Below, one piece after another: positions 35,754 through 50,448 of a stretch of 64,000 nucleotides of DNA (positions are counted from its first letter, which is position 1; each line of letters starts with the position of its first letter). The translations under genes and the position numbers were made by a program. This DNA is from Amycolatopsis nigrescens CSC17Ta-90 (GTDB lineage Bacteria; Actinomycetota; Actinomycetes; Mycobacteriales; Pseudonocardiaceae), in the NCBI RefSeq assembly GCF_000384315.1, contig NZ_ARVW01000001.1, positions 7,175,001 through 7,239,000 on the forward strand, written 5' to 3'. A model generated the notes under the pieces. That model searched no databases. It was not told the origin of the DNA and saw only the letters and a list, made by a program, of their open reading frames with translations.

Positions 35754-35765
35754 GTTCGCACTCCT

Positions 35766-35809
35766 TCGTGAGTGGAAAGTGTTGCCGGAACAACACTTTC
35801 CACTCACGA
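35766..35809. terminator. Perfect 19-bp hairpin between two minus-strand genes
   Basis: Arms 35766-35784 and 35791-35809 pair without mismatch around the loop CCGGAA. It starts three bases after the end of the secreted TIM-barrel gene, so it is placed as its terminator, and it ends 13 bp upstream of the epoxide hydrolase start. Confidence 0.8.
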
Positions 35810-35812
35810 GTG

Positions 35813-37909
35813 TCAGCGGGCGATCTTGATGCTGGCCTGGAGGGCGGGGTCGTTGGACGCGAACGTCCAGCCGTCCCTGCTCTCGAAGCCGGGGTTGCGC
35901 ACGGTGAAACCGACCGAGTCGATGTTGTCCACCCCGGCGTCGATGCCGAGGTCGGCGGTGGGGTTGAGCACGCACAGCTGGAAGGACAGCGTCACGCTGC
36001 TCTTGCCCCGCACGAAGTCCCCGATGTCGATCGGGCCCTGCGCCGACTCGCCGTTCATCCAGGTGTTCTCCCACCAGTCGCCGACGTCGTGGTGGTAGAC
36101 CTGGTTGCCGTCCACCAGCAGCCGCTTGGCCAGCTTGTTCCAGGCGAAGCCGGTCTTGGCGTACTGGTCGTAGTCCCAGAACGAGATCTCGTACCGGGCC
36201 GAGGACGGGTCCACCTTGACCACCTGGCTGGCCGTGGCGCAGCCGCCCTCCCTGGTCGGCGTCCGCTCCGGCGCGGTCAGGCTCAGCCTGCCGTTGCCGT
36301 ACATCGCGTAGTTGTCGCTGCGGAAACCGCTGGTCGGCCGCTCCGGCGGGAACGGCCGGTTGACGAACTGCTCGCCGCGCAGCGAGGTGGCCACCGCGTC
36401 GCGGATCCGGGCCGGCCGGTCCGTGGCGTACAGGTCGATCGACGGCAGCAGCTCGTGGTTGTTCGAGCTGACCGTCCAGCCGTCCGGCGACTCGAACCCG
36501 CCGTTGAGCAGGGAGAGTCCTTCGCCGCTCACGTCGTCGAAGCCGATGTCCAGCGGGTAGTCGCCGACGCCACGGCGGTCGAGCACGCGGAGCGCGATCG
36601 TGGCGGAACGTTTGCCGCGCAGTGCCTCGGTGAGATCGACGGCGCGCCGCTGGTAGGTGTGCCCGCCGCCGTCGGCGATGTCGGACTCCCAGGCCACCGC
36701 ACCGTCCACGAGCACCTGTTTGATGTGGTATCCCGCGCCGTCGAGGTTGCCGTAGTAGCCGTCGAAGTCGTAGAAGGTCAGGATCTTCTTCCGCGCCCGC
36801 GGGTCCACCGTCACCCGTTGCTCGGCCTGCGCGTAGTCACCGGCCCTGGTGCCGACGAACGAGGCCAGCGAGACGTTGAACCGGCCGATCCCGTGCGCTG
36901 CCCGGTTGTCCCCGGTGATGGTCGGCTTGTCCGCCAGCGGCAGGCCGTAGGCGAGCACGCCGAGGAGCCGGTTGGCCCGCACGTACGGCAGCGCGTTCTC
37001 GATCGTCTTCGCCGCGTAGTCCTCGGTGGGCGGCAGCGCGGCGTCCAGGAACCGGCCGCTGTAGAGCAGGAAGAGCACCCCCAGCCCGCGTGGTTCGGTC
37101 TGTTTCAGAATGTTGTCCACATTGGACGCGACCGCGGACGGGTCCTGGGTGTTGTTGTTCCAGCCGAGGTAGGGGTAGACGATGCCGTCGATGTACTTGC
37201 CGAACCGTTCGTAGAAGCCGGAGTTGATGGCCTCCCAGTAGTACAGCGTGGTGTAGAAGCCGAGCTTGGGGTTGATCTCGTCCTGGGTGTCCACCATCCG
37301 CTGCATGTACTCCGGGGTGAACAGCTGCGGGTTCTGCCCGTTCAGGAAGTCGTCGATGGCCCAGGCGACCACGTTCGGGTACTGCAGGGACAGCTTGGCG
37401 ATCTCCTTGGCCCAGGTGATGAAGTCCAGTTTGTACGGCCGTGAGCAGCGGCCGCTCTGGTGCGGCACCGGACTGTCGAAGCACTCCGACGGCGGTACCA
37501 GGTAGACCCAGATCTTGATCCCGGCCCTGGCGGCCGCCGGCGCGAACTCGAGGCGCAGGTCGTCCCAGTCCACTGGGGAGTCCCAGATGTCGAAGACGTA
37601 GGTGTTCAGTCCGACCTGTTTCAGCTTCTCGACCAGGGCGGGGGTGTCGGTGTGCCGGTAGCCGTCCGCGCGCGGGTTTGCTTCGCGGACCTCGGGATAG
37701 ACGGTGTTCCCGCCGGCCTTCGCGGCCTTGACGCCGTCCGGGGGGAGTACGGACTGCCTGATCTCAGACAGCGGGGCGTCCTTGACCCGGTCGTTCACCG
37801 GGGGTGGCTGGTCCTGCGCCGAGGCGGCTGGGGCGGTGGCCGCGAGTGCGGCCGCGACACAGGTGCTAGTGATCAGCGAGACAAGTGCTCTCCAGTGGGG
37901 ACCCCTCAT
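35813..37909 (-). CDS. Secreted TIM-barrel protein, putative glycoside hydrolase, with two C-terminal modules
   Basis: 698 residues from ATG 37909 with GGAG about seven bases upstream. A signal peptide (cleavage after about PAASA) is followed by a barrel-like domain to about residue 380: LKQVGLNTYVFDIWDSPVDW, GIKIWVYLVPPSE, VVAWAIDDFLNG with paired Asp, GFYTTLYYWEA and GIVYPYLGWNN. Two related beta-rich modules follow, each ending in a GFES-DGWT-SN motif (LLNGGFESPDGWTVSSNN and VRNPGFESRDGWTFASND), suggesting an internal duplication with a binding role. The family is not recognised with certainty; carbohydrate cleavage is inferred from fold and neighbours. Confidence 0.8.
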   Translation of the reverse strand: MRGPHWRALVSLITSTCVAAALAATAPAASAQDQPPPVNDRVKDAPLSEIRQSVLPPDGVKAAKAGGNTVYPEVREANPRADGYRHTDTPALVEKLKQVGLNTYVFDIWDSPVDWDDLRLEFAPAAARAGIKIWVYLVPPSECFDSPVPHQSGRCSRPYKLDFITWAKEIAKLSLQYPNVVAWAIDDFLNGQNPQLFTPEYMQRMVDTQDEINPKLGFYTTLYYWEAINSGFYERFGKYIDGIVYPYLGWNNNTQDPSAVASNVDNILKQTEPRGLGVLFLLYSGRFLDAALPPTEDYAAKTIENALPYVRANRLLGVLAYGLPLADKPTITGDNRAAHGIGRFNVSLASFVGTRAGDYAQAEQRVTVDPRARKKILTFYDFDGYYGNLDGAGYHIKQVLVDGAVAWESDIADGGGHTYQRRAVDLTEALRGKRSATIALRVLDRRGVGDYPLDIGFDDVSGEGLSLLNGGFESPDGWTVSSNNHELLPSIDLYATDRPARIRDAVATSLRGEQFVNRPFPPERPTSGFRSDNYAMYGNGRLSLTAPERTPTREGGCATASQVVKVDPSSARYEISFWDYDQYAKTGFAWNKLAKRLLVDGNQVYHHDVGDWWENTWMNGESAQGPIDIGDFVRGKSSVTLSFQLCVLNPTADLGIDAGVDNIDSVGFTVRNPGFESRDGWTFASNDPALQASIKIAR

Positions 37910-38030
37910 AGTATTCTCCGTATATCGAAGATGATTACGAGTAGCTGAAAAATAAGATGATCCCTGGTGAACAGCCGTTGCGGCAAGGTCCGTTGCGGTG
38001 ACGACGGCGTTTTGTGGGAAGAGAGCAAGA

Positions 38031-38843: not shown

Positions 38844-38873
38844 CCAGGGTGGAATATGGTGCCGTTTTGGGAC

Positions 38874-38890
38874 GCGGCAACCCTTGCCGC
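38874..38890. terminator. Short hairpin after the IclR gene
   Basis: GCGGCAA-CCC-TTGCCGC, a perfect 7-bp inverted repeat 31 bp after the stop. It may be a weak terminator. GCGGCAA also occurs in the upstream region of the IclR gene (37980-37986), so an operator role is possible. Confidence 0.4.
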
Positions 38891-38912
38891 CGAACGAGGG
38901 ACGGTTCTAACA

Positions 38913-38927
38913 TCTTCAGGCTGAAGA
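38913..38927. promoter_or_regulatory. 15-bp palindrome upstream of the ABC/catabolic run
   Basis: TCTTCAG-G-CTGAAGA is a perfect dyad in an AT-rich patch 66 bp before the binding-protein start, the size and position of an IclR operator. It is the best candidate control site for the 39-50 kb run. Confidence 0.5.
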
Positions 38928-38993
38928 AGTTATTTTCGAAATGACGATAGGTCGGGATCGGCGCAGCGGTCCGGAGCCAACGGGAGGTTCGGC

Positions 38994-40583
38994 GTGGGGA
39001 TGCGGCGAAGGGGGCTGACCGCGCTCTGCGGTTCGGCCGTCCTGATCATGCTGGCCAGTGCCTGCAGCAGCGGAGACAGCGGGGACTCAGACGGGCCGGA
39101 GGTCCAGCCCTCCGCGCAGAGCGGCCAGGGCCCGGTCAAGGACGGCGGCACGCTGGTCTACGGGCAGACCGTCGGGGTCAGCCAGCTGGACCCGAACAAG
39201 ATCGCCAGCGCCGCGCAGAGCCAGCTGCAGACCCTGCTGTGGAGCGGGTTGACCACCTGGGGCCCGGACAACACCACGAAGCCGGACCTGGCCGCGTCCT
39301 GGGAGCACTCGCCGGACTTCAAGCAGTGGACCTTCAAGCTGCGGCCTGGGGTGAAGTACCACGACGGCAAGGCGTTCACCGCGGCCGAGGCCAAGAAGAA
39401 CTTCGACAAGGTGCTCGAGCCGAACTCGACCGCGCAGGTGGCCACCAAGATCTCGATGGTCTCCTCGGTCACCGCCAAGGACGACACCACGCTGGTGCTC
39501 GACCTCGAGACGCCAAAGCCGGAGCTGCCCACCGCGGTGATCGACGTCAAGATGACCGACGTGGACGACCTGGCCAACGTGAACCAGAAGGCCAACGGCA
39601 CCGGACCGTACAAGCTCAAGTCCTTCGTCCCGGACCAGACCGTCGAGCTGGTCCGCAACGACACCTACTTCGGCGCGAAGCCGCATTTCGACGCGGTGAA
39701 CATCGCCAGGTTCGCGGACGCCACCGCGGCGCAGACGGCGCTGCGCTCCGGTGACATCCAGGTGATGGGCGCGGTCGCCCCGGACGCGGTGAAGAACCTG
39801 GCCACCGACGGCAGGCAGCTGCTCACCGCGGCCGAGCCGGCCGCCTTCGCGGTCTGGGAGCTGGACACCACCTCGGCCCCGTTCAACAATCCGAAGGCGC
39901 GGCAGGCGCTCTCCTACGCGGCGAACCGGCAGGCGATGATGGATGCCGGCTACGCGGGCTACGGGCTGCCGATTCCGGGGAACGTGGTGGTGAACCCGAA
40001 GAACAAGTACTACGACCAGGCGCTGCCCCCGCAGGAGTACAACCTGGACCGGGCCAAGCAGCTGTTCGCCGAAGCCGGGGTCACCGAAGGCAGCACGCTG
40101 ACCTTCTGGACCAAGGCCGGCAGCGATCCGGAGTGGACCACGATCGGCCAGATCCTCCAGGAGGACCTGAAGAAGATCGGGATCAACCTGGACATCCAGA
40201 GCAACGAGAACAGCACCTGGACCGCGAAGTTCTACCCCAAGGGCAAGCCCTACCCGAACATGGTGATCCCGAACTACATCTCCTTCGCGCCGATGCCGGA
40301 CGCATACGCGTTGAGCTGGTTCGCCGGGGAGAAGGGCACCTGCGAGTGCAACTGGGTGGCGCCGGCGGAGTACAACGACGCGGTGGCGGCCATCGAGTCC
40401 AAGGGCGACGGCCCGGAACGCGACGCCGCGTTCAAGACCGCCCAGCAGGTGCTCAACCGCGAGAACCCGATCATCGTGCTCGGCAGCACCGCGTTCCTGT
40501 CCGTGGCGCAGGCGAACGTGCGGGGGGCGTGGGTGCAGGCGGAAGGGACCCTGCACCTGGAGGAGGCCGGGTTCGCGGCCTAG
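38994..40583 (+). CDS. ABC importer substrate-binding lipoprotein, family 5 (peptide/oligosaccharide type)
   Basis: 529 residues; GTG 38994 has GGGAGG seven bases upstream. Lipoprotein signal with lipobox LASAC (Cys about residue 24). The family 5 fold is clear: GGTLVYGQTVGVSQLDPNK, LAASWEHSPDFKQWTFKLRPGVKYHDGKAFTAAE (read in parts), GTGPYKLKSF, NPKARQALSYAANR and DRAKQLFAEAG. It captures ligand outside the membrane for the permeases that follow. Family 5 proteins bind peptides, nickel complexes or oligosaccharides; ligand not deducible. Confidence 0.94.
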   Translation: MGMRRRGLTALCGSAVLIMLASACSSGDSGDSDGPEVQPSAQSGQGPVKDGGTLVYGQTVGVSQLDPNKIASAAQSQLQTLLWSGLTTWGPDNTTKPDLAASWEHSPDFKQWTFKLRPGVKYHDGKAFTAAEAKKNFDKVLEPNSTAQVATKISMVSSVTAKDDTTLVLDLETPKPELPTAVIDVKMTDVDDLANVNQKANGTGPYKLKSFVPDQTVELVRNDTYFGAKPHFDAVNIARFADATAAQTALRSGDIQVMGAVAPDAVKNLATDGRQLLTAAEPAAFAVWELDTTSAPFNNPKARQALSYAANRQAMMDAGYAGYGLPIPGNVVVNPKNKYYDQALPPQEYNLDRAKQLFAEAGVTEGSTLTFWTKAGSDPEWTTIGQILQEDLKKIGINLDIQSNENSTWTAKFYPKGKPYPNMVIPNYISFAPMPDAYALSWFAGEKGTCECNWVAPAEYNDAVAAIESKGDGPERDAAFKTAQQVLNRENPIIVLGSTAFLSVAQANVRGAWVQAEGTLHLEEAGFAA

Positions 40584-40594
40584 GAAGGGTGGGC

Positions 40595-41557
40595 ATGGCC
40601 TGGTATGTGCTGCGGCGCCTCGGCGCCAGCGTGCTGATGCTCGTGCTGGTGTCGATGCTGATCTTCGTGGTGCTGCGGCTGCTGCCCGGCGACCCGACGG
40701 TCACCAAGGTCGGGCAGGCGCAGGGCATCGATCCGGCGGCGCTGCTCCAGCTGCGCACCGAGCTGGGGCTGGAGGACCCGATCCCGGTGCAGTACTGGAA
40801 CTGGATCGCCGGGGTGTTCTCCGGTGACCTCGGCCGCTCCTACTTCAGCCAGTTCGACGTGGACGTGCTGATCGGCCAGCGGTTCGGGCCGACGGTGGAG
40901 CTCTCGCTGGCCGCGCTGGTGCTCGCGGTGCTGCTGGCGCTGGTGCTTTCGGTGCTGCCGACGGTGCTGCGCAGCAAGTGGCTGGCCAGGTTCGTCGGCG
41001 GGTACACCACGCTCGGCATGGCGTCGCCGCCGTTCGTGTTCGGCATCGTGCTGATCGCGATCTTCACGGTGAAGCTGGGCGTCCTGGACAACGAGACCTA
41101 CGTCGCGCCGTCCGAGGATCTGCTCGGCAACCTGCGGGCTTTGCTGCTGCCCGCGCTGACCCTCGGCATCTGCCTGTCCGCACCGTTGATCAGGTACCTG
41201 CGCGCCTCGCTCACCGACATGGAACTGGCGCAGCACGTGCGCACCGCGACCGGCAAGGGGATCAGCCGCCGTGCCGTGGTGCTGCGGCACATCCTGCCGA
41301 ACGCGCTGCTGCCCGCGCTGACCTCGCTCGGCATCACGGTGGGCCAGGTGCTCAGCGGGGCGGTGGTGGTGGAGTACGTGTTCCGCTGGCCGGGGCTCGG
41401 CTCGCTGATCGTGGACTCGGTGTACAAGCGGGACTACGCGGTCATCCAGAGCACGGTGCTGTTGCTGGCCGCCGTTTTCGTTCTGGTGAACCTGGTGGTG
41501 GACATCCTCTACGGGGTGCTCGATCCGCGGCTGCGGGTGGGGAAGGTGACGGCATGA
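40595..41557 (+). CDS. ABC importer permease, DppB type
   Basis: 320 residues, six predicted membrane helices. It begins WYVLRRLGASVLMLVLVSMLIF as DppB/OppB proteins do, has LRLLPGDPT, the EAA loop around RHVRTATGKGISRRAVVLRH, and VEYVFRWPGLGSLIVDSVYKRD. The start is ATG 40595 after GGAAGGG; its stop overlaps the next permease (ATGA). Forms the channel with DppC-like protein. Confidence 0.94.
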   Translation: MAWYVLRRLGASVLMLVLVSMLIFVVLRLLPGDPTVTKVGQAQGIDPAALLQLRTELGLEDPIPVQYWNWIAGVFSGDLGRSYFSQFDVDVLIGQRFGPTVELSLAALVLAVLLALVLSVLPTVLRSKWLARFVGGYTTLGMASPPFVFGIVLIAIFTVKLGVLDNETYVAPSEDLLGNLRALLLPALTLGICLSAPLIRYLRASLTDMELAQHVRTATGKGISRRAVVLRHILPNALLPALTSLGITVGQVLSGAVVVEYVFRWPGLGSLIVDSVYKRDYAVIQSTVLLLAAVFVLVNLVVDILYGVLDPRLRVGKVTA

Positions 41558-42459
41558 CGGCACTGGACCCCGGAGCCGGTGCGCCGCTCGGCGATCCGGC
41601 GGGGGAACCGCGGCGGGACGCGCGGGAGGCGGCGGGGCCCGGCCTGCTGCGCCGGTTCCTCGGCCGGCCGCCGGCCGTGATCGCGCTGGTGGTGCTCGGT
41701 GTTTTCGTGGTGCTGGCGGCGATCCAGCCGTTCGCGCTGGCCTCACCGACCAAGATCAACGCGCGGGACAAGTTCGCCGCGCCGAGTTTCGCGCACCCGT
41801 TCGGCACCGACGAGCTCGGTCGCGACCTGCTGTCCAGGGTGGCGCAGGCCGGGCAGATCTCGCTCGGTTTCGCGGCCGGTGCGACGGTGATCGCGATGCT
41901 GGTCGGGGTCACCTGGGGGATGCTCGCGGCGGCGCGGTCCGGCTGGCTGGACGAGGTGCTGATGCGGATCGCGGAGGCCGCGCTGGCCATCCCGACCATC
42001 CTGTTCGCGCTGGTGTTCGTGGCCGCCTTCGGCTCGGACGTGGTCGCGATGGCGGTGGTGGCGGGCCTGCTGATGTCGCCGCTGACCGCCAGGATCGCGC
42101 GCTCCGCGGTGCTGGCCGAGCTGCAGTCGGAGTACGTGCACGGCCTGGACGCGGTCGGGGTCTCGCGGGTCCGGATCCTGTTCACCGAGGTGCTGCCCAA
42201 CGCGGTGCCCGCGCTGCTGGCGCAGGCTTCGCTGAACGTGGCCATCTCGCTGATGCTGGAGGCCACGCTGAGCTTCGTCGGACTCGGCATCCAGCCGCCG
42301 GACGCGTCCTGGGGCACCCTGCTCAAGGTCGGCTACGACAAGCTGTACGAGTCGATCTGGTACCCGCTGATCCCGGCGCTGCTGATCATCGCCGCGATCG
42401 GCGCGCTGAACACGATCGGCGACCAGCTCCAGCGGGTGCTGCACCGGAGCGGCTCATGA
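41554..42459 (+). CDS. ABC importer permease, DppC type
   Basis: 301 residues. A cytoplasmic N terminus, then helices with the DppC marks: HPFGTDELGRDLLSRV, LARAL-like EAA loop GLDAVGVSRVRILFTEVLPNAVPAL (in parts) and LEATLSFVGLGIQPPDASWG. It pairs with the upstream permease. ATGA overlap at both ends shows tight translational coupling. Confidence 0.94.
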   Translation: MTALDPGAGAPLGDPAGEPRRDAREAAGPGLLRRFLGRPPAVIALVVLGVFVVLAAIQPFALASPTKINARDKFAAPSFAHPFGTDELGRDLLSRVAQAGQISLGFAAGATVIAMLVGVTWGMLAAARSGWLDEVLMRIAEAALAIPTILFALVFVAAFGSDVVAMAVVAGLLMSPLTARIARSAVLAELQSEYVHGLDAVGVSRVRILFTEVLPNAVPALLAQASLNVAISLMLEATLSFVGLGIQPPDASWGTLLKVGYDKLYESIWYPLIPALLIIAAIGALNTIGDQLQRVLHRSGS

Positions 42460-44117
42460 ACGAGTCCGAAGTGCTGCGGCTGGAGGACCTCGGCATCGGG
42501 GTGCGCGTCTCCGGCGGGATGCGGCCGCTGGTGCACGACGTGAGCCTGACCCTGCGCGCCGGGGAGCGGACCGCGCTGGTCGGCGAGTCCGGCAGCGGTA
42601 AGACCATGGTGTCGCTGTCGGTGATGCGGCTGAACCCGGAGCCCACCGCGATCACCGCCGGCAAGGTGCTGCTGAACGGCACCGAGCTGGCGCTGGCGAG
42701 CGAGCGCGAGATGGAACGGGTGCGGGGTGGGCGGATCGCGATGATCTACCAGGACCCGCTGTCCTCGCTCAACCCGGTCCGCACCATCGGCAACCAGCTG
42801 GTGGAGGCGATCCGCGCGCACCAGGACATCTCGCCGAAGGACGCCGCGGACCGCGCGGTGGAGCTGCTGGCCGAGGTCGGCGTGCCGGAGCCGGCGAAGC
42901 GGGTGCGCGACTACCCGCACCAGTTCTCCGGCGGGATGCGGCAGCGGGTGATGATCGCGATGGCCATCTCCTGCTCGCCGGACGTGCTGATCGCGGACGA
43001 GCCGACCACCGCGCTGGACGTGACCACCCAGGCGATGATCCTGCGGCTGCTGGACGACCTTGCCGACCAGCGCGGGATGGCCGTCCTGTTCATCACCCAC
43101 GACCTGGCCGTGGCATCGGTGTTCTGCCAGCGCATCCACGTGATGCGCGAGGGCAGGGTGGTGGAGTCCGGGCTGCTGCGGGAGGTGCTTTCCGCGCCGG
43201 ACCACGAGTACACCCGCGAGCTGCTGGACTCGGTGGTGACCCTGGATCTCGACCCGTCCCGGCCGATGCGAACCCGCGGCGCCCCGGTCACGACGTCCCC
43301 TGTGTCCATTTCGGACAGTGCAGAGGCTGTGGGGGACGCCGAGCCGGGCGAGGTGGTCGTCGAGGCGGAGCATCTGGTGCGCAGGTTCGGCACCGGGGTG
43401 ATCGCGGTGAACGACGTCTCGCTGTCCATCCGCCGCGGGGAGACCTTCGGGCTGGTCGGCGAGTCCGGCTCCGGCAAGTCCACGCTCAGCCAGCTGCTGC
43501 TCGGCCTGGACAAGCCCAGCTCCGGGGTGGTCCGGTATCAGGGCACCGAGCTGTCCGCGCTGAGCCGCGGCGAGCTGCGCAAGCGGCGCCGGGACATGCA
43601 GGTGGTGCTGCAGGACCCGATCGGCTCGCTGAACCGGCGCAAAACGGTGGAGCAGATCGTCGGGCTGCCGCTCGCCGTGCACGAAGGAACGTCCAAAAAG
43701 GACCGCCGGGCCAGGGTGCTGGAGCTGCTGGATCTTGTCGGCCTGCCCGAGTCCTTCCTCGGCCGCTACCCCCGCGAGCTTTCCGGCGGGCAGTGCCAGC
43801 GGGTGAACATCGCGCGCGCGATCGCGCTGGAGCCGTCCTTCCTGGTGCTGGACGAGGCGGTGTCCGCGGTGGACGTGGTGATCCAGGCGCAGATCCTGAA
43901 CCTGCTGCGCGACCTGCAGACCAGGCTGGGGCTGACCTGCCTGTTCGTCTCGCACGATCTCGCCGTGGTGCGCTACATGGCACCCCGGCTGGCGGTGATG
44001 TACCAGGGGCGGATCGTGGAGAGCGGCGGGCGCGACGAGATCTTCGGGAACCCGCGGCACGAGTACACCAGGACCCTGATCGCGGCCATCCCGGCACTGG
44101 AGGTGGCGTCCGGATGA
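42456..44117 (+). CDS. Fused DppD-DppF ABC ATPase
   Basis: 553 residues carrying two ATPase domains on one chain. Domain 1: Walker A GESGSGKT at 43-50, signature FSGGMRQRV, Walker B LIADEPT. Domain 2: Walker A GESGSGKS near 335, signature LSGGQCQRV, and Walker B FLVLDEA followed by VSAVD rather than the usual PTSALD. The linker is at about residues 265-300. It drives the importer. The fusion fixes the two ATPases at equal amounts. Confidence 0.94.
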
Positions 44118-44140
44118 ACGGAAGCGTGGTGGGACGGTGA
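44114..44140 (+). other. Bridging micro-ORF between the ATPase and oxidoreductase genes
   Basis: ATG 44114 overlaps the ATPase TGA; after eight codons (MNGSVVGR) its TGA overlaps the GTG start at 44137. Confidence 0.4.
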
Positions 44141-45147
44141 GCGTCGGGATCGTGCTGGCCGGGCTCGGGGACATCGCGCTCAGCGCGCATCTTCCCGCGC
44201 TGGCGCGCAACTCCGGGGTACGGGTGCTCGGCCTGGTCGACCCGGACGAGCACCGCCGCGAGCTCGCGCGGGCGCTGCTGCCCGCCCCGGCGTTCGCGGA
44301 CCTCGCCGAGGTGCTGGACGATCCGGAGGTGCGGGGCGTGGTGCTGGCGACCCCGCCGTGGGTGACCACCGGGCTCATTCCCCTGGTGACCGCCACCGGC
44401 CGGTTCGTGCTGGCCGAGAAGCCGGTCGCCACCTCGGTGCGGGCCGCCGGTGTGCTCGCCGAACTGCCGGAGCCGCAGCGGGGACTGGTCCAGGTCGGCC
44501 TGACCTACCGGCACGACCCGGCCATGGAGCTGCTGCACGACTGGATCACCGGCGGCCGCCTCGGCTCCCCGTCGCTGGTCCGCGCCCAGATCTACGACGA
44601 ACGCCGCGACCCGGCCGATCCGGCGCACGCCGGCCGGATCGAAGGCACCCTGCGGCACGGCATGCCGGTGGTGCACGAGGGCGCGCACGTTTTCGACTGG
44701 TTCGGCTACCTGCTCGGCGGGCCGCCGGACCGGGTGGCGGACGCGTGGGCGGTGGCGACCAGGCCGGACCTGCCCGCGCCCAACCTGTGCGGCGCCAGGC
44801 TGGAGTACCCGCCGTCGGGCGGGCAGGGCACGCCCACCGTCGTGCTGGCCGAGTTCGGCTGGCTCACCGACGCGCTGCCGCGCTGCGAGATCAGCGTGCT
44901 CGGGGACCGCGGGCACGCGCTGCTCGACGGGCAGAGCTTCCGGTTGGAGCTGAGCACCGCCGCCGGGCTGGAACAGGTCGCCTTCGAGCCGGAGCGGACC
45001 ACCCGCTGCTTCGACCGTCAGCTCGTTCGGTTCGTGGACCTGATCACCGGCGCCAGCACCGCGCCGGCCCCCGATCTCGCGGACGGCCTCGCCGCACTCG
45101 AACTCGCCGAACGGGTGGCCGTGCTGGCCGGGGAGTCCCCGCGATGA
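44137..45147 (+). CDS. Gfo/Idh/MocA-family oxidoreductase
   Basis: 336 residues from GTG 44137. The N-terminal Rossmann NAD(P) domain has VLAGLGDIALSAHLPAL (the glycine-rich loop is GLGDIA, slightly unusual), then VVLATPPWVTTGL and the catalytic-lysine motif AEKPVA. The C-terminal beta-sheet domain shows YRHDPAMELLHDW and MPVVHEGAHVFDW. Family members oxidise sugars, inositols or sugar-derived acids. Placed between the importer and the hydrolases it probably acts on the imported compound. Confidence 0.9.
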   Translation: MSVGIVLAGLGDIALSAHLPALARNSGVRVLGLVDPDEHRRELARALLPAPAFADLAEVLDDPEVRGVVLATPPWVTTGLIPLVTATGRFVLAEKPVATSVRAAGVLAELPEPQRGLVQVGLTYRHDPAMELLHDWITGGRLGSPSLVRAQIYDERRDPADPAHAGRIEGTLRHGMPVVHEGAHVFDWFGYLLGGPPDRVADAWAVATRPDLPAPNLCGARLEYPPSGGQGTPTVVLAEFGWLTDALPRCEISVLGDRGHALLDGQSFRLELSTAAGLEQVAFEPERTTRCFDRQLVRFVDLITGASTAPAPDLADGLAALELAERVAVLAGESPR

Positions 45148-45182
45148 GCCACCCGGACACCGGCGGAAGGGGGCGGGGATGA
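45144..45182 (+). other. Bridging micro-ORF between the oxidoreductase and creatininase-family genes
   Basis: ATG 45144 overlaps the oxidoreductase TGA; after 12 codons (MSHPDTGGRGRG) its TGA overlaps ATG 45179. The next gene's purine-rich ribosome site lies inside it. Confidence 0.4.
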
Positions 45183-45910
45183 GCCTGCTGCACTGGGCCG
45201 AGAGCACCCGCGAGGAGCTGCGGGCGGTGCTGCCGGACGCGCTGGTGGTGCTGCCGATCGGCGCCACCGAACAGCACGGCCCGCACCTGGCCACCGGCAC
45301 CGACGCGGTGCTGGCCGGCACCGTGGCCGAGCTGGCCGCCGCGCGGGTGGCGGACGTGGCCGAGCGGGATCTGGTGCTGGCGCCGCGGCTGCCGTTCGGC
45401 GCGTCCGACCATCACCTGTACTTCGGCGGCACCCTCTCGCTTTCCGCGACGACCGCCACCGCGCTGCTGATCGACCTGGCCAGGTCGGTGACCGGCGGCG
45501 GCGGGCGGCGGCTGGTGATCGTGAACGGGCACGGCGGCAACCGCGGGGTCTGCCACGCCGCCGCCGCGTCCGCGTCCGCGTCGTACGGGCTGACGGTGGC
45601 GATCGTGCACTACTGGGAACTGCTCGCGCCCTCCGGCGACACGCCGATTCCCGGGCACGCCGGCGAGTTCGAGACGGCGATGATGCTCGCCGTGCGCCCG
45701 GAGCTGGTGCGCGAGCGCCGCCAGCGACCGGCGCTGCCGGATGCCGGTGGAGTGTCCGGTGTGGACGTTCACGAGCCGGGGGCGTGGACCAGGATCGACG
45801 GGTACACCGACCAGCCCGCACTCGCGGGGCAGGCACAAGGATCGAAATGGCTGGAGGAGTGCGTGGTGGCGCTGTCCGCTCGTCTCGTCGAACTGGCGAG
45901 GCTGCCATGA
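45179..45910 (+). CDS. Creatininase-family hydrolase
   Basis: 243 residues. Metal-binding and catalytic residues of the family are present: E31, H33, H36 and D42 in ATEQHGPHLATGTD, then NGHGGNRG and the Glu of GHAGEFETAMM. The family cleaves small cyclic or linear amides (creatinine, formamidopyrimidines) and includes the mycofactocin peptidase MftE. Here it may open a lactam, amide or similar bond of the imported compound. It overlaps the next gene by ATGA. Confidence 0.91.
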   Translation: MSLLHWAESTREELRAVLPDALVVLPIGATEQHGPHLATGTDAVLAGTVAELAAARVADVAERDLVLAPRLPFGASDHHLYFGGTLSLSATTATALLIDLARSVTGGGGRRLVIVNGHGGNRGVCHAAAASASASYGLTVAIVHYWELLAPSGDTPIPGHAGEFETAMMLAVRPELVRERRQRPALPDAGGVSGVDVHEPGAWTRIDGYTDQPALAGQAQGSKWLEECVVALSARLVELARLP

Positions 45911-46671
45911 TCGACTTCCACACGCACACGCCGTTGCGGCACGCCGGCACCTGGCTGGGCGGGGCCGACTTCGGTGCCGCGGAGTTCCTCGGGTTCATGG
46001 ACTCGGCCGGCATCGACGCGGCCGTGCTGCTGGCCCACGACGGCCTGTTCAACGCGACCCCGGAGTCGAACGACGAGCTGGCCGAGTTCGTGCGCACCGA
46101 CCGGAGCCGGATGGTCGGCTTCGGCACGGTCAACCCGCGGCACGCCGGCGCGGTGGCGGAGACCGAGCGGTGCTTCGGCGACCTCGGCCTCGGCGGGCTG
46201 AAACTGCACCCGTGGCTCCAGGGTTTCAGCATGCACGAGGGGGTGTTGGACCCGATCTGCGAGGTGATCACCGAGGCGGGAGGCATCCTGCTGTCGCACG
46301 ACGGAACCCCGCCCTACGCCACGCCGAGCCAGATCGCCGCGCTGGCCCGGCGGCATCCCGGACTGCCGGTCGTGCTCGGCCACGGCGGGCTGCACGACTG
46401 CTGGCGGGAGGCGCTGGCGGTCACCACCGAGACGCCGAACCTGTACCTGTGCATCTGCGGCACCCCGCCGTACGCCGCACGGCACATCCTGGCCAACGCG
46501 CCGCGCGGCAAGGTGCTCTTCGGCACCGACGCCGGGCTGTCCGACAAGGTGAGCCAGGACTACGCGGTTGCCAGGGTGGCCGAGATCGATGGCTGGGGCA
46601 TCACCCCGGAGCAGCGCGAGGACATGCTGGAGCACAACCCGCGTGCCCTGCTGTGGGGGAGGCTCCGGTGA
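45907..46671 (+). CDS. Amidohydrolase-2 family TIM-barrel hydrolase (first of three)
   Basis: 254 residues. The metal set is intact: H5 and H7 in IDFHTHTPL, His in ILLSHDGTPP, His in VVLGHGGLHDCW and Asp in VLFGTDAGL. A partner lysine is seen in LGGLKLHPWLQGF. The family includes lactonases, decarboxylases such as ACMSD, and amide hydrolases. It overlaps both neighbours (ATGA and GTGA), so the product is made in step with the creatininase-like and enolase-type enzymes. Confidence 0.9.
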   Translation: MIDFHTHTPLRHAGTWLGGADFGAAEFLGFMDSAGIDAAVLLAHDGLFNATPESNDELAEFVRTDRSRMVGFGTVNPRHAGAVAETERCFGDLGLGGLKLHPWLQGFSMHEGVLDPICEVITEAGGILLSHDGTPPYATPSQIAALARRHPGLPVVLGHGGLHDCWREALAVTTETPNLYLCICGTPPYAARHILANAPRGKVLFGTDAGLSDKVSQDYAVARVAEIDGWGITPEQREDMLEHNPRALLWGRLR

Positions 46672-47780
46672 CCATGCGGAACAGGATCGCCGCGGTGCAC
46701 ACGGTGACCGTCAGCCTGCCCGCCCGCGGCGACCTGGTGGTCCGCGGCGCCAAGGGCGCGCACGACCGGTCGGACTTCCTGCTGGTGCGGGTGGTCACCA
46801 CGGACGGCACCGAGGGCTACGGCGAGGTCAGCGCCACTCCACTGTGGAGCGGCGAGGACGGCACCAGCGCCCAGCACTTCATCTCCGGGGTGCTCACCCC
46901 GGCTCTGCTCGGCAGGCCGCTGGCGCCGGTCGGCGCGCTGGAGTCGGTAATGGACCGGGCGCTGGCCGGGAACCCGTTCACCAAGGCCGGCCTGTCGACC
47001 GCGCTGTGGGACGCCTACGCGCGCGGCCTCGGCGTGCCGCTGGCCACCGCGCTCGGCGGGCCCTACCGCGACGAGGTGCCGATCAAGCTGTCGCTGTCCG
47101 GGGACGGCGCGGACCTGGACCGCACCTACGCGGCCGCGGTGGAGGCCGGTTTCCGGTCCTTCAAGGTGAAGGTGGGCCTCGGCGTGCCCGGCGATCTGGC
47201 GAGGATGGCCAGGGCGCGGGAACTGGCCGGCGCGGGCGTTTTCCTCGGTATGGACGCCAACGGCGGCTGGAGCCGTGCCGAAGCCAGGGCGGCGGTGCGC
47301 GGGCTCGCCGAGTTCGATCCCGCGTTCGTCGAGCAGCCGGTGGCGCCTGGCGACCTGGCCGGGATGGCCGCGCTGCGCTCGGCCGGGCTGCCGGTGATCG
47401 CGGACGAGTCGGTGTTCGGCGTGGACGACCTCGTCCGGCTGGTGCGGGCGGACGCGGCGGACGTGGTCAGTCTCTATGTCGGCAAGGCGGGCGGGCCTGG
47501 CCGGGCGGTGGCGATGGGCGGGCTGGCCGCGGCCTTCGGGGTGGACACCCTGATCGGCTCGAACGGCGAGCTCGGCCTCGGCGCGGCGGCGCAGCTGCAC
47601 GTGGCCTGCGCGCTGCCCGAGCTGAGCACCGGCCTGCCGTCGGACATCATCGGCGCGCACTACTACGCCGAGGACATCCTGGAAGAGCCGCTGGACAGCG
47701 ACGGGGTGCGGGTCCGGCTCGGCTCCGGCCCCGGGCTCGGGGTACTGCCGCGCGACGACATTCGACGGAGGTTCAGGTGA
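46668..47780 (+). CDS. Enolase-superfamily enzyme, muconate-lactonizing/epimerase subgroup
   Basis: 370 residues from GTG 46668 with GGGGAGG upstream. Capping domain (GYGEVSATPLWSGED) then barrel: catalytic K-x-K in FRSFKVKVG near 165-167, metal acids D in GMDANGG, E in FVEQPV and D/E in IADESVF, and a second catalytic Lys in YVGKAGG near 272. A Lys-Lys pair is the MLE-subgroup arrangement (cycloisomerases, dipeptide or N-acyl amino acid epimerases/racemases), not the His-Asp pair of acid-sugar dehydratases. The substrate is unknown. Confidence 0.9.
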   Translation: MTMRNRIAAVHTVTVSLPARGDLVVRGAKGAHDRSDFLLVRVVTTDGTEGYGEVSATPLWSGEDGTSAQHFISGVLTPALLGRPLAPVGALESVMDRALAGNPFTKAGLSTALWDAYARGLGVPLATALGGPYRDEVPIKLSLSGDGADLDRTYAAAVEAGFRSFKVKVGLGVPGDLARMARARELAGAGVFLGMDANGGWSRAEARAAVRGLAEFDPAFVEQPVAPGDLAGMAALRSAGLPVIADESVFGVDDLVRLVRADAADVVSLYVGKAGGPGRAVAMGGLAAAFGVDTLIGSNGELGLGAAAQLHVACALPELSTGLPSDIIGAHYYAEDILEEPLDSDGVRVRLGSGPGLGVLPRDDIRRRFR

Positions 47781-47791
47781 GCTGGCGATGA
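47777..47791 (+). other. Bridging micro-ORF between the enolase-type and second amidohydrolase genes
   Basis: GTG 47777 overlaps the upstream TGA; four codons (VSWR) later its TGA overlaps ATG 47788. Confidence 0.35.
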
Positions 47792-48672
47792 TCATCGACG
47801 TGCACGCGCACACCCCGACTCATCGGGACGAGGTGCCGGCGGGGGAGCGGCGGGTCTATCCGAACTGGCGCACCGACCGACCGGTGACCACCACCAACTC
47901 CTGGGCCGACTTCGACACCGCGATGGCCGACGCGGACGTCAGCATCGTGTTCAACATCGCCGCGGACGACCCGGAGACGATGACCGGGCTGCCCTACCCG
48001 CCGGAGCGGACGAACGACGCGACCGCCGAGTTCGTCGCCGACGACCCGTCGAAGAGGATCGGTTTTCTCTCGGTAAACCCCTTGTGGGACAACGTGTTCG
48101 AGGAGACCGAGCGGTGCAGGGAGCTGGGTCTTGTCGGGGTCAAGCTGGGGCCGAACTACCAGGACTTCGACCCGCTCGGCGAGCCGGCGCTGGCGTTCTA
48201 CGCCTACTGCGAGCGGCACGGCCTGCCGATCCTGTTCCACCAGGGCGCCTCGCCGATGCGGCACGCGCCGCTGCGCTACACCTATCCGCTGGTCACCGAC
48301 GAGGTGGCGATCCGGTTCCCGGAGCTGCGCATCGTGATGGCGCACATGGGGCACCCGTGGGGCACCGAGACGGTGGTGACCATCCGCAAGCACCCGCACG
48401 TGTACGCGGACGTGTCCTCGATCTACCTGCGGCCGTGGGTCTGCTACCAGTCGCTGCTCGCCGCGGTGGAATGGGGCTGCACGCAGAAGTTGTTGCTGGG
48501 CAGCGATTTCCCGATTGCCAACACCGGTGAGGCGATGGCAGGGCTGCGCCGGGTGAACGACATCCTGGAGGGCACCAAGCTGCCGCGGGTGCCGGACGAG
48601 GTGGTGGAGCGGATCATCCACGCGGACGCGCTGGGCGCGCTCGGGCTCTCGGTGCCGGCGGTGCGCACATGA
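47788..48672 (+). CDS. Amidohydrolase-2 family TIM-barrel hydrolase (second of three)
   Basis: 294 residues. All metal positions kept: HAH in IIDVHAHTPT, His in PILFHQGAS, His in IVMAHMGHPWG, Asp in LLGSDFPIA. LVGVKLGPNYQDF aligns with the lysine region of the first paralog. It is longer than its neighbours by an insert after residue 15 (EVPAGERRVYPNW). It overlaps the third paralog by ATGA. Catalysis is expected; substrate unknown. Confidence 0.9.
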   Translation: MIIDVHAHTPTHRDEVPAGERRVYPNWRTDRPVTTTNSWADFDTAMADADVSIVFNIAADDPETMTGLPYPPERTNDATAEFVADDPSKRIGFLSVNPLWDNVFEETERCRELGLVGVKLGPNYQDFDPLGEPALAFYAYCERHGLPILFHQGASPMRHAPLRYTYPLVTDEVAIRFPELRIVMAHMGHPWGTETVVTIRKHPHVYADVSSIYLRPWVCYQSLLAAVEWGCTQKLLLGSDFPIANTGEAMAGLRRVNDILEGTKLPRVPDEVVERIIHADALGALGLSVPAVRT

Positions 48673-49427
48673 CCGGTCCCGTGATCGACGCGCACGTCCG
48701 GATCGGCAGCGGCAGGGAGGTGACCCTGCACCCGGCCACCCTGGTGTCCACAATGGACGAGTTGGGGATCGATCACGCGCTGGTCGCCCCGGACGAGCGG
48801 TGCGTCGCGTTCGCCAACACCGAAGGCAACAACGCGACCGCGGCCGCCGCGCGGGCCTCCGGCGGGCGGCTGCTCGCCTACGCGGTGGCGAACCCGTGGC
48901 AGGGCAGGGCCGCGGTGGCCGAGCTGGAGCGGGCGGCCGGGCTCGGCGCGGTGGCGCTGGCCGTCGACCCGGTGCTGCAGGGCTTCGACCTGCTCGACGG
49001 CCTGGTCGACCCGCTGCTGGAGTTCGCGCGGGAGCGGAGCTGGCCGGTCTACGTGCGCACCGGCACCCCGCCGACCGCGCTGCCGCTGCCGCTGGCCAGC
49101 CTGGCCCGCCGGTACCCGGAGCTGAACATCCTGATGGGGCGCAGCGGTGCCACCGACTTCTGGATCGACGCGGCGCCGGCCCTGCGGTACGCGCCGAACC
49201 TGTACGCGGACACGTCCTACGCGCCGTGGGACACCGTGCTCAGCGAGTTCGCCGCGGACCCCGAGATCGGTACCGCGCGAGTCGTGTTCAGCACGGATTC
49301 TCCTTACACCGTGCCGAAAGCGGAGATCGGACGGGTCCGGGACTGGACCATTTCCGATGCAGAGCGGGCAAAGGTGCTCGGCGGCACCGTGGCCGGCCTG
49401 CTCGGCCTCGCCGCCAGGGTTTCGTAG
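48669..49427 (+). CDS. Amidohydrolase-2-like protein lacking metal ligands (third of three)
   Basis: 252 residues, same fold and order of segments as the two genes before it, but the ligands are lost: VIDAHVRIG (second His replaced by Arg), VYVRTGTPP in place of the FHQG/SHDG His, and LMGRSGATDFW in place of the AHMG/GHGG His. The Asp of VFSTDSPY remains. It may be catalytically dead, metal-independent, or a partner subunit of a sibling. The reading frame is intact and codon use is normal, so it is not simply decaying. Confidence 0.85.
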   Translation: MTGPVIDAHVRIGSGREVTLHPATLVSTMDELGIDHALVAPDERCVAFANTEGNNATAAAARASGGRLLAYAVANPWQGRAAVAELERAAGLGAVALAVDPVLQGFDLLDGLVDPLLEFARERSWPVYVRTGTPPTALPLPLASLARRYPELNILMGRSGATDFWIDAAPALRYAPNLYADTSYAPWDTVLSEFAADPEIGTARVVFSTDSPYTVPKAEIGRVRDWTISDAERAKVLGGTVAGLLGLAARVS

Positions 49428-49474
49428 TGCGCCCCACCTACGCAGAGACCACCAGAAAGGGTGATCGCCGATGA
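49427..49474 (+). other. Bridging micro-ORF between the third amidohydrolase-like and DapA-family genes
   Basis: GTG 49427 shares its G with the upstream TAG; after 15 codons (VRPTYAETTRKGDRR) its TGA overlaps ATG 49471. GAAAGGG, the next gene's ribosome site, lies inside it. Confidence 0.4.
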
Positions 49475-50448
49475 CCGCCACGCACGCTCTGGCCGGCCAT
49501 GACTCCGTTCCGGGATCGGCGAGACCTTCGCCGGTGCGGGGCGTTTCGCCGGTGCTCGAGGTCCCGTTCACCGAGGACGGCGCGGTGGACGCGGACGGTT
49601 TCCGCCGGGTGGTGCGCTATGTGCTCGGCACCGGCGTGAGCAGTGTGATGTTCCCCGGGTTCGCCTCGGAGTTCCACAAGCTCAGCGAGGAGGAACGCGG
49701 GCTGCTGACCGGCATCCTGCTCGAGCAGACCGCCGGCCGGACCGGGGCCTCCGCCGTCTCGGCGATCGTCGCGGTGCAGGATCACGCCACCATGCTGGCG
49801 GTGGCGCGGGCGCGGGCCGCGGTGGCCGCCGGCGCGGACCTGATCAACCTGCTGCCGCCGCATTTCCTGGCGCCTTCGCGGCGGGCCGTGGTGGCGCACG
49901 TGCGCGCGGTGCTGGAGGCGATCGCGCCGACGCCGATGGTGCTGCAGTACGCGCCGACCGAAACCGGCACCAGCCTGGACGGCGCGACACTGGCCGAGAT
50001 CGCTCGCGCGCACGAGAACCTGGCGCTGATCAAGGTGGAGTCCAGCCCGCCGGGCGCGCTGATCGCCGAGCTGGCGGCCGGTGACCCGGCGCTGCCCGCG
50101 GTCGAGGGCTACGCCGGGGTGCAGTTGCCGGACGCGTTCCGCCGCGGCGCGGTGGGCACCCAGCCCGGCTGCTCGTTCACCGAGATCTACGTGGAGATCT
50201 GGCGCCGGCTCGCGGGTGGTGATCAGGCGGGCGGGGAGGAGCTGCACCGGCGGCTGCTGCCCTACATCTCGTACTGGATGCTGGACACCGAGCTGATCGT
50301 CGCGGCGGAGAAGCTGATTTCGAAGCGGCGGGGGTTGTTCGCCAGCTCGATGTGCCGGGAGCCGGCGCACCGGCTCGACCCCGAAGAGGTGCGGATGGTC
50401 GACCGCTTCCTCGCCGAGTTCGCGGATCTGCTGCCGTCCTTGGAGTGA
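49471..50448 (+). CDS. DapA/NanA-family lyase (dihydrodipicolinate synthase family)
   Basis: 325 residues. Class I aldolase-type barrel: VSPVLEVPFTEDGAVDADGF, then MFPGFASEFHKLSEEER, Tyr in VLQYAPTETG and the Schiff-base Lys in LALIKVESSPPG near residue 188. The family cleaves or forms C-C bonds with pyruvate or related keto acids (DapA, NanA, keto-deoxy-acid aldolases, hydroxyproline pathway deaminase). As the last gene of the run it could deliver central metabolites. Three 11-bp repeats begin at its stop codon. Confidence 0.9.
   Translation: MTATHALAGHDSVPGSARPSPVRGVSPVLEVPFTEDGAVDADGFRRVVRYVLGTGVSSVMFPGFASEFHKLSEEERGLLTGILLEQTAGRTGASAVSAIVAVQDHATMLAVARARAAVAAGADLINLLPPHFLAPSRRAVVAHVRAVLEAIAPTPMVLQYAPTETGTSLDGATLAEIARAHENLALIKVESSPPGALIAELAAGDPALPAVEGYAGVQLPDAFRRGAVGTQPGCSFTEIYVEIWRRLAGGDQAGGEELHRRLLPYISYWMLDTELIVAAEKLISKRRGLFASSMCREPAHRLDPEEVRMVDRFLAEFADLLPSLE

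What the first reader, a model, noticed from the sequence alone, without database searches (positions are those of the whole stretch)
38994..50448. Uncharacterised 11-gene uptake and degradation run: importer, oxidoreductase, creatininase-like, three amidohydrolases, enolase-type, DapA-type
Seen: eleven plus-strand genes, nearly all joined by ATGA/GTGA overlaps or micro-frames, behind an IclR regulator and a 15-bp dyad. Known: family 5 importers bring in peptides or oligosaccharides; Gfo/Idh oxidise sugars or cyclitols; creatininase and amidohydrolase-2 proteins open amide, lactam or lactone bonds; MLE-type enolase enzymes epimerise or cycloisomerise; DapA-type enzymes cleave keto acids. Inferred: a pathway for an amide-containing sugar/cyclitol derivative or modified peptide. 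I know of no described pathway with this set.
Basis: partly seen in the sequence, partly recalled or inferred. Interest (0 to 1): 0.72.

Follow-up and report, generated by a model that had tools for sequence, protein, structure and literature searches.

The report
Regulon for degrading an unidentified glycan
A soil actinobacterium carries a co-regulated gene set that appears to cut an unknown sugar-type compound outside the cell, import it and turn it into a keto acid; relatives of the set turn up in scattered actinobacteria, and it includes a hydrolase-like protein whose metal-binding histidines have mostly become arginines or lysines.

Summary
The eleven genes are real, tightly packed, and carry the named domains. 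The unit is larger than reported: IclR and a divergent secreted 698-aa protein (35813-37909, minus) very probably belong. A palindrome read from the IclR flanks (TTCGNNATNNCGAA) marks transcription-unit starts in relatives (six-hairpin protein 6/7, binding protein 7/8, KDPG-aldolase-family gene 4/5; internal genes 0/103). Core genes recur in Amycolatopsis, Jiangella, Sinosporangium, Dactylosporangium and, diverged, Conexibacter, but rarely (6 of 297 genomes of the family sample, own included). In nine of 24 loci a CUT1 sugar importer stands in place of the peptide-type importer; Gfo/Idh alternates with an SDR; a PfkB kinase with a KDPG-aldolase-family gene, or a secreted six-hairpin glycosidase-fold protein, joins in some. 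This favours an oxidised sugar or lactone over an amide or peptide. AH3, one of three amidohydrolases, has Arg, Arg and Arg/Lys in place of three metal-ligand histidines in 120 of 120 sequences (own plus 119 best homologues) and co-occurs with AH1 (both in 20 of 24 loci, neither in 4). Best reading: a new variant of oxidative sugar-acid catabolism. No enzyme passes a curated model for any named step; the substrate is unknown.

The parts
35813..37909 (-). SecTIM: secreted-looking 698-aa protein of unknown family, divergent from IclR; probable glycosidase (inferred)
   Evidence: Translation; no Pfam or NCBIfam match and no meaningful PDB sequence match; homologues near the operon in 8 of 24 loci: L015, L016, L020, L021, L045, L049, L059, L060 (in L021 and L049 several kb from IclR). 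TIM-barrel fold inferred from the sequence, not modelled.
37913..37932 (.). operator-like site ATTCTCCGTATATCGAAGAT just upstream of SecTIM
   Evidence: identical in L015 and L016
37998..38843 (+). IclR-family regulator (start codon uncertain)
   Evidence: PF09339 and PF01614; relatives 66-90% identical in 16 of 24 loci, 27-59% in 4, none found in L024, L025, L047, L061
38913..38948 (.). 15-bp dyad (38913-38927) and adjacent operator TTCGAAATGACGAT (38935-38948)
   Evidence: 38931-38947 is the only match to TATNTTCGAAATNNCGA at up to 1 mismatch in the whole genome
38994..40583 (+). family 5 solute-binding protein
   Evidence: PF00496; one of 17 matches in the genome
40589..41557 (+). ABC permease B (start GTG 40589 or ATG 40595)
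   Evidence: PF00528, PF19300 (given from 40580); start region
41554..42459 (+). ABC permease C
   Evidence: PF00528
42456..44117 (+). fused double ABC ATPase
   Evidence: PF00005, two stretches
44137..45147 (+). Gfo/Idh oxidoreductase
   Evidence: PF01408, PF22725; EKP and HEGxH..D motifs kept in 15 of 15 sequences; an SDR stands in its place in 6 loci
45179..45910 (+). creatininase-family hydrolase
   Evidence: PF02633, E 3.7e-54; below cut-offs for creatininase, MftE and IolN
45907..46671 (+). AH1, amidohydrolase-2 with intact metal ligands
   Evidence: PF04909; HxH, H, H, D in 21 of 21
46668..47780 (+). enolase-superfamily enzyme, MLE type
   Evidence: PF13378, PF02746; K166, K168, D196, E222, D246, K273, E301 kept in 25 of 25 sequences
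47788..48672 (+). AH2, amidohydrolase-2 with intact metal ligands
   Evidence: PF04909; seven inspected residues 121 of 121 (own plus the 120 listed of 2689 homologues)
48669..49427 (+). AH3, amidohydrolase-2 fold with three metal-ligand histidines replaced by Arg, Arg and Arg/Lys
   Evidence: PF04909; 120 of 120 sequences; model pLDDT 93.1, nearest solved folds amidohydrolase-2 decarboxylases
49471..50448 (+). DapA-family Schiff-base lyase or dehydratase
   Evidence: PF00701; Lys188 kept in 18 of 18 sequences that reach it; best solved relative L-2-keto-3-deoxyarabonate dehydratase 7c0c

Best explanation
This is an IclR-controlled catabolic regulon for a sugar-type compound that carries or acquires a carboxylate (an oxidised sugar, uronate, or anhydro-sugar/lactone). 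Proposed order: the secreted SecTIM protein (in some other genera a six-hairpin glycosidase-fold protein) frees the compound from a glycan or glycoside; the ABC importer brings it in; Gfo/Idh (an SDR in some relatives) oxidises it; metal-dependent hydrolases of the creatininase and amidohydrolase-2 families (AH1 with AH3 as partner, AH2) open a lactone or other cyclic bond; the MLE-type enolase removes the proton next to the carboxylate and eliminates or isomerises, giving a 2-keto-3-deoxy acid; the DapA-type enzyme cleaves or dehydrates it, and in several relatives a PfkB kinase and a KDPG-type aldolase may take the product to pyruvate. Shown here: gene content, conservation, shared operator-like sites, residue conservation, alternation of importer and dehydrogenase. 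Inferred: substrate class, reaction order, AH1/AH3 complex, SecTIM as glycosidase, IclR as the protein that binds the sites.
For: Core genes, whole or in part, in 24 loci. CUT1 sugar importer and no family 5 binding protein in 9 of 24 loci. PfkB kinase and KDPG/KHG-aldolase-family gene divergent from IclR in L017, L022, L046, L048, 70-89% identical to the L022 copies. Secreted 834-aa protein near the operon: model pLDDT 87.7, best Foldseek hits GH116, GH95 and GH65 glycosidases and cellobiose phosphorylase. The palindrome, read from the IclR flanks, was then found before SixH (6 of 7) and DapA (7 of 16), and before none of 103 internal genes (AH1, AH2, AH3, Enol, SDR, PermB); random 130-bp windows 65 of 4800. 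In the 20 loci with AH1/AH3, 14 have the Gfo/Idh and 6 the SDR, none both (L047 is cut at a contig end; the 26% SDR hit in L059 is not counted). Known enolase-superfamily reactions remove a proton next to a carboxylate (passage of PMC6946804). DapA protein nearest to L-KDA dehydratase among solved structures.
Against: No enzyme passes an equivalog cut-off for any named sugar-acid step: the PfkB kinase scores best with the inositol kinase model IolC (156.9 bits, cut-off 300) and then KDG/KDGal kinase (145.5, cut-off 400), the aldolase 150.3 against 156.05 for eda, and the DapA protein best with dapA itself (49.7, cut-off 206.15). The window's genome uses a family 5 importer, a class best known for peptides, and its two KDPG-aldolase-family genes lie far away. 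Distant variants L057, L058, L061 carry a dimethylformamidase-beta-like protein, an Amidohydro_1 enzyme or a class III aminotransferase. Similarity of the six-hairpin protein is at fold level only (TM about 0.36-0.45) and it is absent from the window's genome. In the family sample only 3 of the 6 genomes with the enolase have a SecTIM match, and 9 genomes have a more distant SecTIM match without the enolase.
Confidence: 0.58

Rival explanations
1. One reading: the pathway degrades an amide-, lactam- or peptide-containing compound (an amino-sugar amide or an opine-like sugar-amino-acid conjugate); creatininase and amidohydrolases cut C-N bonds.
For: Family 5 importer; best solved sequence relative of the binding protein is AgaA, E 9e-40 (an opine binder, recalled), hardly ahead of the next at 8e-39; nitrogen-type enzymes near three distant variants.
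Against: CUT1 sugar importer in 9 of 24 loci; sugar-kinase, KDPG-aldolase-family and glycosidase-fold partners under the same operator-like site; creatininase-family protein at 86.9 bits against the creatininase cut-off of 235; no aminotransferase or amino-acid dehydrogenase domain among the operon's own genes.
Confidence: 0.15
2. A cyclitol pathway: Gfo/Idh oxidises an inositol-like ring, the creatininase-family enzyme opens a diketo ring as IolN does, and amidohydrolase and enolase continue. A special case of the sugar-type reading with a carbocyclic substrate.
For: Best NCBIfam hit of the Gfo/Idh protein is inositol 2-dehydrogenase (80.6 bits, cut-off 355) and IolN is the third hit of the creatininase-family protein (42.5 bits, cut-off 245); the PfkB kinase of L017 scores best with the IolC model.
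Against: All far below cut-off; MftE scores higher for the creatininase-family protein (117.5); an SDR can stand in for Gfo; none of the other iol-type families was matched among the operon's genes.
Confidence: 0.14
3. Cell-wall peptide recycling: peptide importer, MLE-type dipeptide epimerase and DapA-like enzyme act on muropeptides.
For: The enolase matches the L-Ala-D/L-Glu epimerase model (94.5 bits, cut-off 500), and an epimerase is the fourth solved relative; importer of the oligopeptide class.
Against: The enolase scores higher with the muconate/chloromuconate model (174.9 bits); among solved structures the DapA protein is nearer to L-KDA dehydratase (75.6 bits) than to dihydrodipicolinate synthases (58.3); Gfo/Idh, SDR, kinase and glycosidase-fold partners stay unexplained.
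Confidence: 0.05
4. A biosynthetic (natural-product) cluster rather than catabolism.
For: Actinobacterial host; several uncharacterised enzymes.
Against: Importer, secreted protein and IclR control; no assembly-line, transferase or export domain among the genes of 35813-50448.
Confidence: 0.05

Closest known systems
Oxidative galacturonate pathway of Agrobacterium (Udh, Gli, Gci, KdgD)
   Same: Same logic: NAD dehydrogenase, lactone-acting amidohydrolase-superfamily enzyme, cycloisomerase, dehydratase/decarboxylase (passages of PMC6353982; family membership of Gci and KdgD recalled).
   Different: The enolase here has the MLE-type strand-6 Lys; the DapA protein is far below the KdgD model (43.9 against 373.95 bits); extra creatininase-family enzyme, two extra amidohydrolases, secreted proteins, IclR and shared operator-like sites.
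[quoted passage not shown]
   Same: An actinobacterial route in which an enolase-superfamily cycloisomerase makes a 2-keto-3-deoxy acid from a sugar acid (passages of PMC9706016).
   Different: SCO3480 has Asp270/His297 in its active site (figure legend); here Lys273 (VGKAGG) and the SNGELG stretch stand in that part of the barrel. The passages seen mention no amidohydrolase, creatininase or DapA enzyme.
L-2-keto-3-deoxyarabonate dehydratase (PDB 7c0c, 3fkk)
   Same: Best solved relatives of the DapA-type protein; Schiff-base Lys aligned.
   Different: Only 81.5 bits with the family profile; activity unknown.
Creatininase family (creatininase, MftE, IolN)
   Same: Family match and metal motifs EQHG, D, NGHGGN.
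   Different: Below the three equivalog cut-offs listed.
Amidohydrolase-2 / ACMSD-type decarboxylases
   Same: Family of AH1, AH2 and AH3; fold of AH3.
   Different: AH3 has Arg, Arg and Arg/Lys in place of three metal-ligand histidines.

Membership tests
Creatininase (EC 3.5.2.10) | score over TIGR04448 cut-off 235 | tested here: not met
   86.9 bits
3-dehydro-scyllo-inosose hydrolase IolN | score over NF041098 cut-off 245 | tested here: not met
   42.5 bits
Mycofactocin peptidase MftE | score over TIGR03964 cut-off 172 | tested here: not met
   117.5 bits
MLE subgroup of the enolase superfamily | KxK, three metal-binding acids, Lys on strand 6 (signature recalled) | tested here: met
   K166, K168, D196, E222, D246, K273 kept in 25 of 25 sequences
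Muconate/chloromuconate cycloisomerase | score over TIGR02534 cut-off 334.95 | tested here: not met
   174.9 bits
Agrobacterium-type oxidative uronate pathway | KdgD-type dehydratase | tested here: not met
   43.9 bits against 373.95
Agrobacterium-type oxidative uronate pathway | dehydrogenase, amidohydrolase-superfamily, enolase-superfamily and DapA-family enzymes in one unit | tested here: met
   domain content only; activities not tested
Active amidohydrolase-2 enzyme (AH3) | HxH, His, His, Asp metal site | tested here: not met
   R, R, R/K in 120 of 120; Asp kept in 120, first His in 119
Active amidohydrolase-2 enzyme (AH1, AH2) | HxH, His, His, Asp metal site | tested here: met
   AH1 21 of 21; AH2 24 or 25 of 25 (one Tyr at the second His), 121 of 121
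Known glycoside hydrolase family (SecTIM, six-hairpin protein) | match to a Pfam or NCBIfam model | tested here: not met
   (one weak hit, oligosaccharide amylase, far below cut-off); fold-level similarity for the six-hairpin protein
KDG kinase / KDPG aldolase (relatives' partner genes) | score over an equivalog or subfamily cut-off | tested here: not met
   kinase 145.5 against 400; aldolase 150.3 against 156.05; Pfam families met
Importer of a known ligand (dipeptide, oligopeptide, nickel) | binding protein over an equivalog cut-off | tested here: not met
   best 166.4 against 393; the fused ATPase passes NikD, NikE and some other cut-offs, with two matched stretches summed
Sugar-acid catabolism in general | growth on, and enzyme activity with, a defined sugar acid | not testable with these tools
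   needs experiment

The most novel reading that the evidence does not exclude
An undescribed catabolic route for an as yet unassigned glycan component, begun by two unclassified secreted glycosidase families and passing through a heteromeric amidohydrolase in which AH1 carries the metal and AH3, a conserved partner with an arginine/lysine trio in place of the metal site, supplies cationic substrate binding or a metal-free active site.
Probability: 0.3. Interest if true: 0.75.

Novelty: new variant of a known kind. Interest (0 to 1): 0.57.

Why it matters
It gives a bounded, testable unit (one regulator, one operator-like site, one importer, seven enzyme-type proteins, one secreted protein of no known family) for a carbon source that several actinobacterial families seem to degrade and that my searches did not find named. 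AH3 is a clean case of a conserved amidohydrolase-fold protein with metal ligands turned into Arg or Lys, and the SecTIM and six-hairpin proteins are candidates for new glycoside hydrolase families.

Tried and rejected
Literature: gene-set searches, an IolN search and two searches for metal-free or pseudoenzyme amidohydrolases gave no paper describing this set or AH3; only open-licence texts are held. I saw listings, and passages of PMC6353982, PMC9706016 and PMC6946804; no paper was read whole.

Dead ends: the plus-strand frame 35732-37444 used as a query is the antisense of SecTIM; the frame 35813-38212 is SecTIM with a false upstream start. The exact dyad, sought across loci, is at the operon promoter only in the window and, with 4 mismatches, in L020. 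PDB sequence searches of the six-hairpin protein, the Conexibacter protein L024:11092-12441 and SecTIM gave nothing usable. The phylum-wide draw found only the window's own copy (1 of 396, stricter cut-off 1e-90); families gave 6 of 297, 6 of 200, 2 of 121, 4 of 150, each count including the genome at its centre.

Results against my reading: SecTIM and enolase do not track each other in the family sample: of 6 genomes with the enolase 3 have a SecTIM match (own, G254, G267; 65-100% identity), 3 do not, and 9 have a more distant one (29-43%) without the enolase. Of 6 such contexts fetched, most look unrelated; in L089 and L090 CUT1-like permeases (29-34%) and an AH1-like protein (27-28%) are near, and in L089 a frame that looks enolase-like by eye. 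Nitrogen-type enzymes lie near L057, L058, L061. The operator-like site is missing from the IclR flanks of L044, L049, L057, L058 (17 of 21 have it) and from many starts (Crea 5 of 22, Gfo 5 of 14, CUTsbp 2 of 9, IclR 5 of 19), partly because these genes are internal there. The pattern was written after looking at the IclR flanks, so counts there are not independent; SixH and DapA sites were found afterwards; several loci are close kin (three Jiangella). One search dropped genes under 40% identity or without 100 bp of start region. AH3 conservation rests on own plus 119 listed of 500 homologues; among 21 operon copies one has Ile at the third position. AH1 forms one group only weakly in the tree (74/98) and the own-genome outgroups are on long branches. 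On rechecking, I lowered the best explanation from 0.60 to 0.58 and raised the cyclitol rival from 0.12 to 0.14, because the relatives' kinase scores best with an inositol-pathway model.

Full report
OBSERVATION. The window is positions 7175001-7239000 of a 9.11-Mb genome; the closest named relatives of its enolase are in Amycolatopsis. Joints are tight: 4-base overlaps at five of ten joints, micro-frames at two, gaps of 5 or 11, 7 and 43 bp at three. The importer is a family 5 system with one fused double ATPase; the regulator is IclR type.

LEFTWARD EXTENSION. Divergent from IclR lies a 698-aa protein with a signal-peptide-like start, 35813-37909 on the minus strand, here called SecTIM. It matches no Pfam or NCBIfam model and no solved structure by sequence. 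Homologues lie near the operon in 8 of the 24 loci: L015, L016, L020, L021, L045, L049, L059 and L060. In L059 and L060 it lies between the enolase and AH2 genes. Its C-terminal part holds two related stretches (overlapping alignments). A TIM-barrel fold is my inference and was not modelled. In the family sample SecTIM and the enolase occur together in 3 genomes, the enolase alone in 3, and distant SecTIM relatives alone in 9.

CONSERVATION. Leaving out duplicates, 24 loci were compared. The enolase is in all 24 by selection; the creatininase-family gene in 23 (L047 is cut by a contig end); AH2 in 23; AH1 and AH3 in 20. The full order with IclR and the family 5 importer is kept in L015, L016, L020, L040 and L042; core genes are kept in Jiangella (L018, L019, L021), Sinosporangium (L017), Dactylosporangium (L022) and, more diverged and without IclR or DapA in view, Conexibacter (L024). 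The set is rare: 6 of 297, 6 of 200, 2 of 121 and 4 of 150 genomes in four family draws, and 1 of 396 (itself) in a phylum-wide draw at a stricter cut-off.

WHAT ALTERNATES TELLS THE SUBSTRATE CLASS. In nine loci no family 5 binding protein is seen and a CUT1 carbohydrate importer lies downstream (binding protein SBP_bac_1). Gfo/Idh is present in 14 of the 20 loci that have AH1/AH3 and an SDR in the other 6, none has both (L047 is cut, and a 26% SDR hit in L059 is not counted). In L017, L022, L046 and L048 a PfkB sugar kinase and a KDPG/KHG-aldolase-family gene are divergent from IclR; weaker relatives lie near L045, L049 (kinase only) and L057 (aldolase only). These two genes are placed at family level: the kinase scores 156.9 with the IolC model (cut-off 300) and 145.5 with KDG/KDGal kinase (cut-off 400), the aldolase 150.3 with eda (cut-off 156.05). 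In L017, L018, L019, L021, L022 and L046 a secreted-looking protein of 818-835 aa (SixH) stands nearby. Its model has mean pLDDT 87.7, and the best solved matches are glycosidases of GH116, GH95 and GH65 and cellobiose phosphorylase (TM about 0.36-0.45). One source names a close homologue a six-hairpin glycosidase domain protein. SixH is absent from the window's genome and from the other Amycolatopsis-type genomes searched (5 of 16 genomes have it). These partners fit a carbohydrate better than a peptide.

ONE REGULON. From the IclR flanks I read a palindrome, TTCGNNATNNCGAA. At up to one mismatch it occurs 24 times in 7,140 bp flanking IclR and 37 times in 418,660 bp elsewhere in the same 21 sequences. 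Sites not used to write the pattern lie before SixH, DapA and, in two loci, the CUT1 binding protein. In the 130 bp at gene starts the site is found before SixH 6 of 7, SBP 7 of 8, KDPG aldolase 4 of 5, DapA 7 of 16, Gfo 5 of 14, IclR 5 of 19, Crea 5 of 22, CUTsbp 2 of 9, and before none of AH1 (19), AH2 (24), AH3 (20), enolase (24), SDR (7) or PermB (9); random windows 65 of 4800. A related element before SecTIM, 37913-37932, is identical in two relatives. So importer, enzymes and secreted proteins are probably controlled together; that IclR binds these sites is inferred.

AH3. AH1 and AH2 keep the HxH, His, His, Asp metal site (AH2 121 of 121). In AH3 the second His of HxH and the strand-5 His are Arg in 120 of 120 sequences (own plus the 119 best homologues), and the strand-6 His is Arg in 97 and Lys in 23; the first His is kept in 119 and the Asp in 120. 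In the 21 operon copies the third position is Arg 18, Lys 2, Ile 1. AH3 sequences form one group (support 100/100) on a stem of 2.23 changes per site, and the model keeps the amidohydrolase-2 fold (pLDDT 93.1; nearest solved structures decarboxylases such as 3s4t/4qro, 2dvt and ACMSD). AH1 and AH3 occur together in 20 of 24 loci and are both missing from the other 4. The title of PDB entry 4ifk, 'Arginines 51 and 239* from a Neighboring Subunit are Essential for Catalysis' in a zinc-dependent decarboxylase, makes an AH1/AH3 pair mechanistically plausible; this is inference.

CHEMISTRY. The enolase keeps the MLE-type residues K166, K168, D196, E222, D246, K273 and E301 in 25 of 25 sequences (subgroup meaning recalled). 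Known reactions of this superfamily begin with proton removal next to a carboxylate (passage of PMC6946804), so an intermediate is probably a carboxylic acid. The DapA-type protein keeps Lys188 and is nearest, among solved structures, to L-2-keto-3-deoxyarabonate dehydratase, though NCBIfam's best model is dapA at 49.7 bits, far below its cut-off. The creatininase-family protein scores below the three named models it matches. Together: oxidation, hydrolysis of a lactone or other cyclic bond, enolase-type elimination or isomerisation, then a keto-acid lyase or dehydratase. This is the logic of the Agrobacterium oxidative galacturonate route (passages of PMC6353982; family assignments of Gci and KdgD recalled), but the DapA protein is far below the KdgD model and the enolase is of another subgroup, so membership is not claimed.

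VERDICT. Real, conserved and probably co-regulated; substrate unknown; best read as a new variant of oxidative sugar-acid catabolism with unclassified secreted proteins at its start and a probable pseudoenzyme in the middle.

Noticed in passing
35772-35803: Perfect inverted repeat GTGGAAAGTGTT-N8-AACACTTTCCAC between SecTIM and the next minus-strand gene; no other copy in the window, and among the 95 loci held only the own-genome locus L076 has it. Terminator-like or regulatory; unexplained.
   Followed up: partly
50520-52379: Sodium/proton exchanger with a C-terminal zf-UBP zinc-finger domain, also downstream of the operon in L015 (82%); the fusion struck me as unusual (recalled, not searched).
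   Followed up: no
L061:584-10064 and L057:17624-19249: Distant operon variants carry an N,N-dimethylformamidase-beta-like protein, L061 also a class III aminotransferase and a U32-like protein: possibly a sister pathway for a nitrogen compound.
   Followed up: no
L057 and L058 (one genome, G922): One genome holds two diverged copies of the pathway, one with and one without AH1/AH3.
   Followed up: no
L018:1617-3392: FG-GAP repeat protein beside the six-hairpin protein in 6 loci; role unknown.
   Followed up: no
L024:11092-12441 and L058:8048-9265: Unassigned 405-449-aa protein (weak GHL10 hint, E 0.17, for the L024 copy) between the enolase and AH2 genes.
   Followed up: partly
L089 and L090: SecTIM relatives in two other genomes lie near CUT1-like permeases and an AH1-like protein; in L089 an enolase-like frame (by eye) is close too, perhaps a parallel pathway.
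   Followed up: no
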